64,000 nt of DNA from Dethiosulfovibrio faecalis (GTDB lineage: Bacteria > Synergistota > Synergistia > Synergistales > Dethiosulfovibrionaceae): positions 186,001-250,000 of the forward strand of contig NZ_JAKGUE010000003.1 in the NCBI RefSeq assembly GCF_021568795.1. Reading direction: 5' to 3'. Shown in pieces: positions 1,673-46,357 of the stretch. The stretch's first letter is position 1. Every line of letters begins with the position of its first letter. Position numbers and translations under genes: made by a program. The notes beneath the pieces are model-generated. The model saw only the letters and a list, made by a program, of their open reading frames with translations. It did no database searches and was not told the origin of the DNA.

Positions 1673-1779
1673 GAGGCAAAGAGCCCGTTCCCGCTCAAGC
1701 GGCTGTACGAGATCTCTCGTTGAGGATATAATCTCTATTCGGTTGTGTAATTTATTTAAGGCAGGAGGAGATGGTGCTT

Positions 1780-3141
1780 ATGCGTTTTAGAACAATCGCA
1801 GGGTTCGTCTTTTTTATGGTGTCCTTTTTGTTCCGATCGGTGGCTTTCTCGGAAGAGGTCGACACGAATCGATTGAAAGAACTCGTAAACGGAGGGAACT
1901 GCGTTCTCGTGGATGTCAGGGACAGCGCTGCCTTCAATGGGTGGAAGCTGGATGGTGTCTCCAGAGGAGGCCATATCGCCGGAGCGGTCAATTTTGCCGC
2001 CTCATGGCTCGGCGTTGACCGTAAAGACCGAGAAGAGGTGCTGGACCAGGCGTTGGCGGACAAGGGAATCGCAAAGGATAAGACGGTCGTGTTGTACGAC
2101 GTGAACGGCCGTGATTCCGTCGAGGTGGAGAGATGGCTCGAGGGCAAGGGGTTTGAGAACGTATTGACCTACGACGGCAAAAAATGGATCGACGATCCCG
2201 ATCGGCCCGTTGAAGTCTTTTCCGGATATAGTCTGTTGATTCCTGCCGAGGTTTTGAAGGATCTCGTGGATGGCAAGAGACCGGAGACTTTCGAGAAGGC
2301 TGGAAATGTCCGTATACTCGAGGCGAGTTGGGGCGAGGAAAAGACCTCCTATGCCAAGGGGCATGTCCCCGGTTCCGTTCATGTCAATACCGATTGGGTG
2401 GAGCCTCCCGAGGAATACTTGCTGGAAGGCGATGATAAACCGGTTACCATGTGGATACTGGCCTCTTCGGATAAGCTGATCGATCTGGCACGAAGACTCG
2501 GAGTCTCGTCGAACGACACCGTGGTGGTCACAGGTGAGCATCAGATGGCGGCCTATCGTGTGGCTTTCGTGATGGAATATCTGGGAGTAGCGGATGTACG
2601 GGTTTTGGACGGTGGCAACGATGCATGGGTTAGGGCCGGTTATCCGTTGGAAAAAGATAGTGTGAAGCCCGAGCCAATAGACGATTTCGGAAGAACCTCT
2701 CCCGGCAGACCCGAGATTTTGGATACTATGGATGAGACCAGAGAAAGGCTTGTAGACGATCCCGATTTCGTGTTGGTGGATGTCAGAACCTGGGACGAGC
2801 ATATCGGCAAGGTTTCCGGTTATTCCTATCATCATAGAAAAGGGCGTATACCCGGATCCGTCTTCGCCTACGCTGGCAAGACCGATTCCAACTCTTTGGA
2901 TTACTATCGGAACGTGGACGGAACCATGAGGGAACCTAGAGAAATCCTCGCCATGTGGAAGGATTGCGGCGTAGACACCTCGAAACATCTATCGTTCATG
3001 TGCGGCAGTGGCTGGCGGGTGGCCGAGGTCTGGTTTTATTCCAGGACTATGGGGCTTCGGGACACGTCCATGTTCAGCGACGGTTGGATCGGCTGGAGCA
3101 ATGCCGGATATCCCTTCGAGACAGGGGAGCCGGCAAAATAA
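1780..3141 (+). CDS. exported protein with three rhodanese domains
   Basis: A signal peptide (MRFRTIAGFVFFMVSFLFRSVAFS) is followed by three rhodanese-like repeats at about residues 25-150, 155-300 and 305-450. Each has the VLVDVR or equivalent entry and an HIAGA/HVPGS/RIPGS segment. Only the third keeps a catalytic cysteine loop (SFMCGSGWR); the first has a Asp/Asn-containing loop (LYDVNGRD) and the second TGEHQM, so two domains are probably structural. Rhodaneses pass sulfane sulfur between thiols, and this one would act in the periplasm. The ATG at 1780 was chosen because AGGAGG sits 9-12 nt upstream, whereas the ATG at 1771 touches the SD. A terminator follows. Confidence 0.85.
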   Translation: MRFRTIAGFVFFMVSFLFRSVAFSEEVDTNRLKELVNGGNCVLVDVRDSAAFNGWKLDGVSRGGHIAGAVNFAASWLGVDRKDREEVLDQALADKGIAKDKTVVLYDVNGRDSVEVERWLEGKGFENVLTYDGKKWIDDPDRPVEVFSGYSLLIPAEVLKDLVDGKRPETFEKAGNVRILEASWGEEKTSYAKGHVPGSVHVNTDWVEPPEEYLLEGDDKPVTMWILASSDKLIDLARRLGVSSNDTVVVTGEHQMAAYRVAFVMEYLGVADVRVLDGGNDAWVRAGYPLEKDSVKPEPIDDFGRTSPGRPEILDTMDETRERLVDDPDFVLVDVRTWDEHIGKVSGYSYHHRKGRIPGSVFAYAGKTDSNSLDYYRNVDGTMREPREILAMWKDCGVDTSKHLSFMCGSGWRVAEVWFYSRTMGLRDTSMFSDGWIGWSNAGYPFETGEPAK

Positions 3142-3272: not shown

Positions 3273-3608
3273 ATGAAACACGTGTATTACAGATCAGCCC
3301 AGCTGCGCCATGGAATCATGTCCGACGGCAATATCGCCTTCCTGTCCGCGGCGGCGCTTCTTGCGTCGTTGGTTTTGTTTTCGCTTTTTTGGGTAGGTAA
3401 AAAGAAATGGAGCCGAATTTGCCTTGCGGAGATTTTATGGGGAGTCTGTTTGAGCTTGTTTCTTGTCGCTGTTATTGACATGAGATGGTCTATGGATCAT
3501 GTTTCCTATCGTTACGTAATTATAGCGGTGTTTTGGGCGTGGATTATACAGCTTGTACCCCTGCTCTTAGGGACATGGAATTTTTTTGCTCGAGGTGGTC
3601 GTCTGTGA
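3273..3608 (+). CDS. small putative membrane protein
   Basis: An open frame of about 111 residues (from ATG 3273; ATG 3318 would give 96) with three hydrophobic segments: IAFLSAAALLASLVLFSLFW, ICLAEILWGVCLSLFLVAVI and YVIIAVFWAWIIQLVPLLLG. Its stop overlaps the GTG start of the next gene by 4 bp (GTGA), which argues that it is real and translationally coupled. The SD is weak (GGAG very close to 3273). I do not recognise the family. Confidence 0.5.
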   Translation: MKHVYYRSAQLRHGIMSDGNIAFLSAAALLASLVLFSLFWVGKKKWSRICLAEILWGVCLSLFLVAVIDMRWSMDHVSYRYVIIAVFWAWIIQLVPLLLGTWNFFARGGRL

Positions 3609-4324
3609 GAAGGTTTCTTAACAGGTCGTTTCTTTTGAGGGTCTTTCTGCCGGTGGTCCTGATAGCCGGGGTCGTGGCTTTCAAGCCGTCCAGAGATTGG
3701 ATAAAACAGGTTTTCTTGATGTTTCAGCTTCTGGACGTGAACCTTATTCGGGGATACATACTGTCGTTCGGAATCTGGGCTCCGGTCATGTCCTTTTTCC
3801 TCATGGTGTTTCAGTCGGTTATAGCTCCTCTTCCGGCGTTTCTGATAACCTTCGCCAACGCCGGGCTTTTCGGTTGGTGGAAGGGGGCTATCCTGTCCTG
3901 GTCGAGCGCCATGGCCGGTGCTGCTCTGTGTTTCTTTATCGCCAAATGGTACGGAAGAGGCCCGGTGGAGCGTCTCACCTCCAAGGCTGGGCTCGAAGGG
4001 GTAGACCGTTTCTTCGAACGCTACGGCAACTATGCCGTTTTCGTGGCGAGGCTTCTTCCCTTCGTGTCCTTCGATATCGTAAGCTACGGGGCCGGACTGA
4101 CCTCCATGAAGTTCTGGCCGTTCTTTCTGGCCACCGGATTAGGGCAGCTGCCGGCCACCGTAGTCTACTCTTACGTCGGGGGGATGTTGACCGAGGGGAC
4201 GAGACGTTTCGTCCTGGGCCTTTCCCTGCTTTTCGTCTTGACCGCTTTGGTCTCTCTGTGGAAAAAGATCTATAGGGATCGCAGGGATTCGGAAAGTTGC
4301 GTCGATCTATCCTCGGGAGATTGA
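3605..4324 (+). CDS. VTT-domain (TVP38/TMEM64, DedA-like) membrane protein
   Basis: 239 residues with about six hydrophobic segments. It has the VTT signature: a re-entrant region (QSVIAPLPAFLITFANAGLFG), the basic stretch FFIAKWYGRG, and the F-[x]-R motif region VARLLPFVSFDIVSYGAG. VTT/DedA proteins are implicated in lipid scrambling and envelope homeostasis. GTG 3605 was chosen because GAGGTGG lies 6 nt upstream and it overlaps the preceding stop (GTGA). It converges on the selenocysteine-rhodanese gene with only 10 bp between stops. A second VTT protein lies at 11439-12107, bracketing this neighbourhood. Confidence 0.82.
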   Translation: MRRFLNRSFLLRVFLPVVLIAGVVAFKPSRDWIKQVFLMFQLLDVNLIRGYILSFGIWAPVMSFFLMVFQSVIAPLPAFLITFANAGLFGWWKGAILSWSSAMAGAALCFFIAKWYGRGPVERLTSKAGLEGVDRFFERYGNYAVFVARLLPFVSFDIVSYGAGLTSMKFWPFFLATGLGQLPATVVYSYVGGMLTEGTRRFVLGLSLLFVLTALVSLWKKIYRDRRDSESCVDLSSGD

Positions 4325-4334
4325 TCGATAGACG

Positions 4335-5261
4335 CTATTTCTCTATCGGCATGTCCTCGTTTCCGCCCCACTCGTAGATGGATCCCTCGTAGTTTCTCAC
4401 CCGCTCAAAGCCGACGGCTCTGAGAACCGAGGTAACGTACCCCGATCTTATGCCCATCGTTCAGTAAACGGTGAAGGAATCCTGCGGAGTCAGTCCGAAT
4501 CTCTCTTTCATGATGGACTTTATCTCCTCCGCCGATTTGGGGCTGCCGTCTTTGTTCAGTATGTCCAGCCACAGCATCCACTTGGATCCGGCTATGTGGC
4601 CGCCTCTGGGTTCCCCGGCGTTGGTGCTGCCGTCGAACTCCTTTTTGGTCCTGGTATCGATGATGAGTTCCTTTCCCAAGGAGCTGTACACCTGGTCCAT
4701 TGTGGTGTACCAGGACGGATCGTATTCGTGAAGGGTGAGTGCCCCCTCGTCCGAGGGGGAGGGTTTCGCAACCTTTTTCGTAAGATCGTACCCCAGCGAA
4801 CGATAGAGGGGCAGTCCGCCGTAGAGGAGTTTGACGTTCTTCATCCCGGCCATCTTCAACTGCCAGAAGTTGCGTCCGTCCGCTCCGGGACCTTTGAACA
4901 TATTGGAATATAAGACCACTATGGAATCGTCGTTTACTCCCAGCTCTCTCAGTTTTTTCTCCAGACGATCTATTGGAAGGGACGTGCCCCAACCGGGGTC
5001 GCCAGGTCTTCCCACCGTTTTGGACAGGAAGTGAAAACCGATGTTTACCGCTCCAGGTATGTGTCCCTTCCGGTAGACCTTGGGATTGTTCCCGTCCAAC
5101 AGGACCAGCTTGGGGTCGCCTAAAATCGAGTGGAGCTTCTGCGGCGTGATGAAGTACTCGGGGTGGACGAATCCGGAAAGATCCGGCTCTCCGCCCCAGG
5201 CGGTCGCCGAGATGGTCAGCATGCATAACGCGAACCACACTCGGAGAAGAGTTTGCTTCAT
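4335..5261 (-). CDS. periplasmic two-domain rhodanese with in-frame TGA at the catalytic position (probable selenoprotein)
   Basis: A signal peptide (MKQTLLRVWFALCMLTISATAWG) is followed by two rhodanese domains. The frame runs 266 codons, meets TGA at 4461-4463, then continues 41 codons to TAG at 4335. The TGA stands exactly where the catalytic Cys of the second domain belongs: DSFTVY-[TGA]-TMGIRSGYV, the family loop being C-x-x-G-x-R-S. The downstream codons keep family features, ending NYEGSIYEWGG like the usual YdGSwxEWG tail. The natural reading is selenocysteine at residue 267 of 308. A suitable stem-loop follows the TGA. As a thiosulfate/3-mercaptopyruvate-type sulfurtransferase it would act in the periplasm. 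A standard gene finder would truncate it at 4461 and lose the active site. Confidence 0.82.
4429..4443 (-). promoter_or_regulatory. candidate bacterial SECIS stem-loop
   Basis: On the mRNA, 17 nt after the TGA, GGGGUA pairs with UACCUC (six pairs including one G-U) around the loop CGU. The loop guanine is 25 nt from the UGA, within the distance range described for bacterial SECIS elements, which carry a G in a small apical loop inside the coding region. Confidence 0.55.
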
Positions 5262-5378
5262 TTAAGTAACTCCTTTCATATTAAGGTGCTATCATCATGC
5301 GATCCCTACGAAAAGGGATTATACACATTATAACCTGTGGTGACCAGGGTTGCCGTGTGGATCGGAGGAGGTCGAAAG

Positions 5379-6476
5379 TTGAAGTTGAACGAGGCCGTTT
5401 GCCCGGAATTACGGGTTTTCGCCGATAAGTGTGTTGATTGCGGACTGTGTCTCAAGGGATGCATTATGTCCGACCAGTTGGAAGAGGGGCCGGGGAAGGT
5501 AGTATCGCATTTTCTTAAAAACGGCGTGATCGAGGACGACTGGGCCTTCCGTTGTTCCCTTTGCGGCTACTGTTCCAGCGTCTGTCCCGTCGGAGCGGAC
5601 CTAAGGTCCGTCATGACCGCCCTCAGAAAGAGGGCCTGTGCGAAGCCGTCCTTAAAAATGAGAAAGCTTTTCGCCGGGGTCCTCGCGTTTCAGTTTATGG
5701 CGGCCTGGGAACATATGGGAACGCCTCCGGTCTTCCCGAAGGGTAAGGGGCGTAGGCTGTTTTTCCCGGGGTGCGCCTTGGCGTCCTCCGATCCGGAGCT
5801 GGTGCTGATGACCTGGAGGGAGCTTCGTTCCCTGGATTCCGACATGGGCATCATGGTCGGTTGCTGCGGAACTCCCGCCGCGTCTCTCGGGCGAGACGAC
5901 GTTGCCGAAGGGATAAGGTCCGAATTGGCTAAAACCCTGATGTCCTGCGGGGTCGAGGAGATCGTGGTGGCCTGTCCGAACTGTCTGAAGGCCCTGTCGA
6001 GCCTTCCCGTGAAGGTGTCGTCCATATGGGGTTGTCTGGGAGGTAACGGATCCCTGTCCGGATCTCGACATGCCGAGTTGGAGGGGGCCATGTTCCACTC
6101 TCCCTGTCCCCTCAGGGACGACGAAAGGGAGTTGGCCGAGGTCGAGAGACTGGCGGAAGAGGTCTGCCCGTCCATACGCACCGATCCCTACGGTTCGAAG
6201 GGCGGACTTTGCTGCGGGGCGGGGGGAATGGTTCCCATCGTCCATCCCGAGGTACTGTCGTCCTGGTCCGAGAGGATATCCCGCTACAGACGTAACGGTG
6301 AGACGGTGGTCTGCTGCTGTCAGAGCTGCGTGGACTCTCTGGGGGGAGGCGACTCCGACGTGGTGCATCTCCTGAGGTTGATGCTGGGCGGTGCTTCGCC
6401 GCCTCCTCCTACGGGATTGTCCAGATGGACCAACCGCAGGAAACTGAGAAGGGCGATACTCGACGACGTTGAATAA
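5379..6476 (+). CDS. heterodisulfide-reductase-like (Fe-S)/CCG-domain oxidoreductase
   Basis: 365 residues. Two ferredoxin-type clusters open the protein: CVDCGLCLKGC and CSLCGYCSSVCPVG. Two cysteine-rich CCG-type segments follow (FFPGCAL...VGCCGTP...CPNC and SPCPL...GGLCCGAGG...CCCQSC), as in HdrB, GlpC and the glycolate oxidase Fe-S subunit. Such proteins pass electrons to or from thiol/disulfide or keto substrates. The TTG start at 5379 follows GGAGGAGGT by 6 nt; the upstream GTG frame has no SD. It is divergent from the selenocysteine-rhodanese and followed by the radical SAM gene. The partner and substrate are unknown. Confidence 0.8.
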   Translation: MKLNEAVCPELRVFADKCVDCGLCLKGCIMSDQLEEGPGKVVSHFLKNGVIEDDWAFRCSLCGYCSSVCPVGADLRSVMTALRKRACAKPSLKMRKLFAGVLAFQFMAAWEHMGTPPVFPKGKGRRLFFPGCALASSDPELVLMTWRELRSLDSDMGIMVGCCGTPAASLGRDDVAEGIRSELAKTLMSCGVEEIVVACPNCLKALSSLPVKVSSIWGCLGGNGSLSGSRHAELEGAMFHSPCPLRDDERELAEVERLAEEVCPSIRTDPYGSKGGLCCGAGGMVPIVHPEVLSSWSERISRYRRNGETVVCCCQSCVDSLGGGDSDVVHLLRLMLGGASPPPPTGLSRWTNRRKLRRAILDDVE

Positions 6477-46080: not shown

Positions 46081-46357
46081 CTTTACGAGAGCTTCTGAAA
46101 CGTAAAGCCTCGGTCAGGTTGCCCCGACGGAGCCCGTTCGAGCCCGTATTTTAGACCTGCCGTCGTGTAGGACGGATGGGGCGACAGGACGTCGCCCCAA
46201 GCCGAGGGGGCACAGGACGTGCCCTCGGAGGCGGTCCGTTCGGAACAGGCAGGTCGAAAATACGCTCGGGCGAGACAGGGCTCGGGCGGGGCGACCTGAC
46301 CGAGGCGATTCGGTAGTCCGGTAAAGAACCGTGTAGGTTCTCTGCCGGACTTTTTTT
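46081..46357 (+). ncRNA. candidate structured RNA of unknown class with CAGGACG loops
   Basis: No gene fits here. A 20-bp near-perfect stem joins 46107-46126 to 46287-46306 (one G-U). It continues inward with GAGCCC/GGGCTC, GTATTTT/AAAATAC and GACCTGCC/GGCAGGTC, so the two arms pair over about 55 nt with small bulges. The apical region holds two adjacent hairpins, 46179-46199 (GGGGCGAC/GTCGCCCC) and about 46203-46229 (CCGAGG..GCAC/GTGC..CCTCGG), both with the loop AGGAC closed by C-G. A further TAGGACGG sits at 46168-46175 and ACGGA/TCCGT closes the branch. A small hairpin (CTTTACG/CGTAAAG) precedes it and a strong terminator ends it. The reverse complement folds similarly, but the terminator points right. 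Confidence 0.65.
46315..46357 (+). terminator. rho-independent terminator of the candidate RNA
   Basis: AGTCCGG and CCGGACT pair around an inner GAACC/GGTTC hairpin, followed by seven T. It ends either a free-standing RNA or the long kdsB-kdnB-kdnA transcript. Confidence 0.85.

What the first reader, a model, noticed from the sequence alone, without database searches (positions are those of the whole stretch)
4335..5261. Rhodanese with TGA in place of the catalytic cysteine: probable selenoprotein missed by standard annotation
Seen: the frame stops at TGA exactly at the catalytic loop (VY-TGA-TMGIRS). The next 41 codons encode the conserved end of a rhodanese domain (GY...YEGSIYEWGG) before a TAG. 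Known: Sec commonly replaces catalytic Cys, and rhodanese-fold selenoproteins have been reported. Inference: a periplasmic Sec-rhodanese with higher reactivity toward sulfane sulfur or selenium.
Basis: partly seen in the sequence, partly recalled or inferred. Interest (0 to 1): 0.87.

Follow-up and report, generated by a model that had tools for sequence, protein, structure and literature searches.

The report
Exported rhodanese using selenocysteine
A thiosulfate-reducing anaerobic bacterium (genus Dethiosulfovibrio) encodes an exported sulfur-transfer enzyme whose catalytic cysteine is almost certainly selenocysteine, written as a TGA that reads as a stop under the standard code; this is a real but not unprecedented kind of selenoprotein.

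Summary
A minus-strand gene (5261..4335) encodes a signal peptide and two rhodanese domains. It meets TGA at codon 267 (4463..4461), exactly at the active-site cysteine of SseA/RhdA-type rhodaneses, then runs 41 more codons to TAG. The genome has tRNA-Sec, selA, selB and selD, and selD carries its own in-frame TGA. Four further Dethiosulfovibrio genomes keep the TGA, the frame and the 308-residue length at 84-97% identity. The 41 codons after the TGA are more conserved than those before it. A hairpin fitting the bacterial SECIS model lies 23 nt after the UGA; it fits strictly in three orthologs and has one deviation (G third in the loop) in two. Two same-genus genomes lack the gene, one by clean absence at the syntenic site. 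Distant Synergistota homologs carry Cys or, unexpectedly, Asp at the site. The selenoprotein reading is therefore well supported. Novelty is limited: Sec-rhodaneses are a known group (five forms catalogued, one in the same COG2897/SseA family with the same UxxG spacing), and Synergistota are known to be selenoprotein-rich. The enzymatic role, periplasmic sulfane-sulfur transfer in a thiosulfate- and sulfur-reducing genus, is inferred and untested.

The parts
4335..5261 (-). Coding sequence of an exported two-domain rhodanese selenoprotein, 308 residues, Sec at 267, stop TAG 4337..4335
   Evidence: translation; Pfam Rhodanese E=1.3e-28, two stretches; orthologs of identical length
4461..4463 (-). 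In-frame TGA = selenocysteine codon 267 at the catalytic position
   Evidence: aligned with the active-site Cys of 1uar and 1e0c; TGA in all orthologs
4425..4447 (-). Candidate bacterial SECIS hairpin GAUCGGGGUA-CGU-UACCUCGGUU, 10 bp, apical loop 4435..4437, 23 nt after the UGA
   Evidence: MFE -10.6 kcal/mol, meets the bSECIS constraints (model in PMC13188914)
4338..4460 (-). 41 codons after the TGA: TMGIRS active-site loop and C-terminal end of the rhodanese domain
   Evidence: 0-2 nonsynonymous differences between orthologs
5193..5261 (-). Probable Sec-type signal peptide (MKQTLLRVWFALCMLTISATAWG); cleavage probably after AWG (AWA in L028)
   Evidence: sequence; inference from hydrophobic stretch and -3/-1 small residues
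5265..5280 (-). Ribosome-binding site, AAGGAG within the stretch just upstream of the ATG
   Evidence: sequence, present in the orthologs
5318..5346 (-). Sigma-70-like promoter TGGTCA-17-TATAAT
   Evidence: consensus scan, 1 found against 0.5 expected: weak
3485..4324 (+). Neighbour: VTT/DedA-family membrane protein, syntenic in orthologs; its own stop codon is TGA
5337..6476 (+). Neighbour, divergent: 4Fe-4S dicluster / CCG-domain protein, syntenic in orthologs

Best explanation
The TGA is read as selenocysteine by the cell's own SelA/SelB/SelD/tRNA-Sec system, helped by a stem-loop just downstream, giving a 308-residue protein. That protein is exported by its signal peptide and folds as a two-domain SseA/RhdA-like rhodanese, with an inactive N-terminal domain and a catalytic C-terminal domain. 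The mature protein contains no cysteine, so the selenol of Sec267 is its only chalcogen nucleophile. Inferred chemistry: the selenol takes the outer sulfur from thiosulfate, polysulfide or a similar sulfane-sulfur donor, forms a selenosulfide (Se-S) intermediate, and passes the sulfur to a reductant or acceptor in the cell envelope, feeding H2S production from thiosulfate or sulfur. Sec insertion is strongly supported by sequence (the confidence given is for that part); the substrate and acceptor are inferred (about 0.5).
For: Exact position of the TGA at the catalytic Cys. tRNA-Sec 68.8 bits, over cut-off; selB 357.7 bits; selA 556.9 bits; selD 322.6 bits, itself with an in-frame TGA at its canonical Sec/Cys site (TSG*AAKIG). 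TGA, frame and length conserved in four further Dethiosulfovibrio genomes, with purifying selection after the TGA. SECIS hairpin 23 nt after the UGA at -10.6 kcal/mol; 1.25% of 400 synonymous recodings and 3.6% of 500 ordinary coding positions do as well under the same constraints. Cys at the aligned site in homologs such as L054 and L055 (YCTIGIRSGF against YUTMGIRSGY). The only Cys codon in the frame is in the signal peptide. [quoted passage not shown] PMC3035263).
Against: No proteomics or 75Se data. In the two more divergent orthologs the G is third, not first or second, in a 5-nt loop, so the strict SECIS model fails there by one position. About 13% of random coding positions pass the strict SECIS thresholds, and a plain dinucleotide shuffle gives only z=-1.64, so the hairpin is supporting and not decisive. 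No gene neighbour specifically ties the protein to thiosulfate reduction. The many Asp-site relatives show the family can dispense with a chalcogen at this site.
Confidence: 0.93

Rival explanations
1. Pseudogene or sequencing error: the TGA is a recent nonsense mutation or base-call error.
For: The frame stops at TGA under the standard code.
Against: The same TGA occurs in independently assembled genomes at 84-97% identity; there is no other stop or frameshift, and constraint is stronger after the TGA than before it.
Confidence: 0.01
2. A truncated 266-residue protein is the real product and the post-TGA frame is kept for another reason, such as a separate 40-residue ORF starting at ATG codon 269 or an overlapping element.
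For: There is an ATG two codons after the TGA.
Against: The conserved part is exactly the C-terminal end of the rhodanese domain, colinear with solved structures. Truncation would remove the catalytic residue and the closing secondary structure.
Confidence: 0.03
3. The UGA is translated, but as another residue (Cys or Trp by suppression or recoding), not as Sec.
For: Cys homologs exist.
Against: The genome has a complete Sec system and a Sec-type selD. TGA is used as an ordinary stop next door: the VTT/DedA gene ends in TGA.
Confidence: 0.03
4. It is a Sec protein, but its job is not sulfur transfer for thiosulfate or sulfur reduction: for example selenium handling, cyanide detoxification, peroxide or persulfide redox sensing, or thiol-disulfide chemistry in the envelope.
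For: The active-site loop TMGIR fits neither the classical TST loop (CRKGVT) nor the MST loop (CG[ST]G[VT]T) (general knowledge). No dedicated thiosulfate-reduction gene adjoins. Most predicted Sec proteins are thought to be redox proteins (PMC9312934).
Against: The fold is an unambiguous rhodanese and the genus is a specialist sulfur and thiosulfate reducer.
Confidence: 0.45

Closest known systems
Rhodanese-like selenoprotein 'form 4' (COG2897/SseA type, UxxG), Sargasso Sea metagenome (PMC1088965; listed in PMC9312934 and PMC13188914)
   Same: Two-domain SseA-type COG family, Sec at the catalytic Cys, UxxG spacing (here UTMG)
   Different: Here in Dethiosulfovibrio (Synergistota), with a signal peptide and a conserved genus-specific locus; the published sequences could not be fetched for direct comparison
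Rhodanese-like selenoproteins forms 1, 2, 3 and 5 (UxxS, UxxG, CxU, TsoB UxxxxU; PMC13188914)
   Same: Sec in a rhodanese domain
   Different: Catalogued under other rhodanese families (COG0607/PspE, NF041203, a rhodanese/DsbD fusion) or with another motif spacing
Azotobacter vinelandii RhdA (1e0c) and Thermus thermophilus rhodanese (1uar)
   Same: Full-length two-domain homology (E about 1e-28) with the catalytic Cys at the Sec position
   Different: Cys, not Sec; no signal peptide in the solved chains
Synergistota two-domain exported rhodaneses with Cys (L054, L055) or Asp (for example L029, L032) at the site
   Same: Nearest homologs found (33-36% identity), same two-domain core
   Different: Cys or Asp in place of Sec

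Membership tests
Bacterial selenoprotein | In-frame UGA aligned with a catalytic or conserved Cys in homologs | tested here: met
Bacterial selenoprotein | Complete Sec machinery in the genome (selA, selB, selC, selD) | tested here: met
Bacterial selenoprotein | bSECIS hairpin: loop 3-9 nt, stem 4-16 bp, 16-37 nt from the UGA, G in the first two loop positions, MFE <= -7.5 | tested here: met
   Window and two orthologs meet all points; two divergent orthologs have G third in the loop (model)
Bacterial selenoprotein | UGA and downstream frame conserved in related species | tested here: met
Bacterial selenoprotein | Sec physically present in the protein | not testable with these tools
   needs 75Se labelling or mass spectrometry
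Rhodanese superfamily, COG2897/SseA-type two-domain | Two rhodanese domains, catalytic residue in the second | tested here: met
   Pfam PF00581, two stretches; full-length alignment with 1uar and 1e0c
3-mercaptopyruvate sulfurtransferase (NF008557) | Score over the curated cut-off of 250 bits | tested here: not met
   79.2 bits, so not filed as an MST
Sec-rhodanese form 4 (UxxG, SseA type) | UxxG at the active site of a COG2897-type protein, common descent with published members | tested here: inconclusive
   The motif UTMG and the fold fit; published members were not available for alignment, so common descent was not tested

The most novel reading that the evidence does not exclude
A genus-specific, exported and otherwise cysteine-free Sec-rhodanese acts as a dedicated envelope thiosulfate or polysulfide sulfurtransferase in sulfur reduction, making selenium a requirement for efficient thiosulfate or sulfur reduction in Dethiosulfovibrio.
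Probability: 0.2. Interest if true: 0.6.

Novelty: new member of a known kind. Interest (0 to 1): 0.35.

Why it matters
It adds a well-supported selenoprotein that standard gene calling would truncate just before its catalytic residue, in a genus defined by thiosulfate and sulfur reduction. It gives a testable link between selenium supply and sulfur chemistry in the cell envelope. The family also offers a natural U/C/D comparison at one catalytic position.

Tried and rejected
Pseudogene, sequencing error and recoding to another residue were tested and rejected. A second hairpin (CUCAGAGCC-GUC-GGCUUUGAG) was considered as the SECIS and rejected because its loop starts 45 nt after the UGA, beyond the 16-37 nt range. 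The structure prediction from a five-row alignment was poor (pLDDT 42), so no fold search was run on it. A search for Sec orthologs outside Synergistota was not possible at scale: the genome-contig scan returned only one Dethiosulfovibrio locus, and plasmids gave only homologs below 60% identity, about 29-32% among the ten listed. One literature search failed or timed out.

Full report
What is there. On the minus strand, ATG at 5261 opens a frame of 266 codons that meets TGA at 4463..4461, followed by 41 codons and TAG at 4337..4335. The product has a hydrophobic N-terminal signal sequence and two rhodanese domains (Pfam PF00581, E 1.3e-28). A ribosome-binding site (AAGGAG) precedes the ATG and a weak promoter match lies at 5346-5318.

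The TGA is at the catalytic residue. phmmer alignment places U267 on the active-site Cys of Thermus thermophilus rhodanese (1uar, VYCRIAERS) and Azotobacter RhdA (1e0c, HCQTHHRSG), over nearly the whole length of both (E about 1e-28). Apart from one Cys codon inside the signal peptide (absent in the divergent orthologs), the frame has no Cys, so Sec267 would be the only chalcogen nucleophile of the mature protein.

Sec machinery. In the same genome: tRNA-Sec (68.8 bits, gathering 47), SelB (357.7 bits, cut-off 242), SelA (556.9 bits, cut-off 268; just upstream of selB) and SelD (322.6 bits, cut-off 125). SelD is itself interrupted by a TGA at its canonical site (TSG*AAKIG), an independent in-genome case of a probable Sec codon. 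TGA is also an ordinary stop here: the neighbouring VTT/DedA gene ends in TGA.

Comparative evidence. Four further genomes of the genus (G001, G002, G003, G005) keep the TGA, the frame and the length, at 84-97% identity. L023, a named Dethiosulfovibrio MAG contig of 7446 bases, appears to be the same contig as in G002; the genus assignment of the window rests on it. Against L028 there are 46 nonsynonymous differences in 266 codons before the TGA and 1 in 41 after it; synonymous differences are 99/266 and 11/41. A dead reading frame would show the opposite. The gene sits in a conserved order (VTT/DedA - Sec-rhodanese - 4Fe-4S/CCG protein - radical SAM - ABC transporter). In G004 the VTT/DedA and CCG orthologs are directly adjacent with no remnant between them; G006 has no homolog by this search. 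So the gene is present or cleanly absent, not decaying.

SECIS. A 10-bp hairpin (GAUCGGGGUA-CGU-UACCUCGGUU) has its loop 23 nt after the UGA, G in the second loop position followed by U, and -10.6 kcal/mol. It meets all four points of the published bacterial model (PMC13188914). Two divergent orthologs keep a 9-bp stem but have a 5-nt loop with G third, a one-position departure. The stem is unusual among synonymous recodings (1.25% of 400 as good under the same constraints) and among ordinary coding positions (3.6% of 500), but about 13% of random positions pass the bare thresholds and a dinucleotide shuffle gives z=-1.64. It is supporting evidence, not proof. The selD TGA in the same genome has a comparable hairpin (17 nt after the UGA, loop GGC, -8.7).

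Relatives and origin. Across 188 Synergistota genomes, 72 have a match at E<=1e-15. Only the five genus members have a TGA in the match; the rest are 27-36% identical and uninterrupted. At the aligned site, among the fetched homologs, some carry Cys (closest in motif: L054 and L055, YCTIGIRSGF) and 24 carry Asp (YDTAGVRSA). In an unrooted tree the Sec proteins form one fully supported group next to the Cys pair and the Asp group; the branches are long and polarity is not resolved.

How it most likely works. Shown by sequence: signal peptide, fold family, position of the TGA, machinery, conservation. Inferred: Sec267 attacks a sulfane-sulfur donor to give a selenosulfide and passes the sulfur on in the envelope. 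[quoted passage not shown] The active-site loop fits neither the classical TST nor MST pattern (general knowledge), and the MST equivalog model is not met (79 against 250 bits), so the substrate stays open.

Relation to what is known. Rhodanese selenoproteins have been catalogued in five forms (PMC13188914). One is of the same COG2897/SseA type with UxxG, found in the Sargasso Sea data (PMC1088965). Synergistetes are a recognised selenoprotein-rich phylum (PMC5029168). I found no paper describing this Dethiosulfovibrio protein, but supplementary tables were not readable, so it may already be listed. The right label is a new member of a known kind.

Noticed in passing
L018 / L085 (G000:C1:168512-169444): selD of this genome is itself a probable Sec gene: in-frame TGA at TSG-TGA-AAKIG with a SECIS-like hairpin 17 nt downstream.
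   Followed up: partly
L029-L035, L038, L056-L071 and others (24 loci): In many Synergistota the homologous exported two-domain rhodanese has Asp at the catalytic Cys position (YDTAGVRSA), forming one group of 24; a family with Sec, Cys and Asp at one catalytic site is odd, and the Asp proteins are kept and conserved.
   Followed up: partly
window 1771-3141 (+): Exported triple-rhodanese protein close by: Asp (LYDVNGRDS) and no Cys (VVTGEHQMA) at the first two active-site positions, Cys (FMCGSGWRVA) only in the third; weak similarity to ExtH of selenite/tellurite reduction operons.
   Followed up: partly
window 46125-46278 (+): TwoAYGGAY RNA (Rfam RF01731), 56.4 bits, a cis-regulatory RNA candidate.
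   Followed up: no
L076 (G004:C1), 1440-1560: Clean absence of the Sec-rhodanese between the VTT/DedA and CCG orthologs in one genus member: gain or loss without a remnant.
   Followed up: partly
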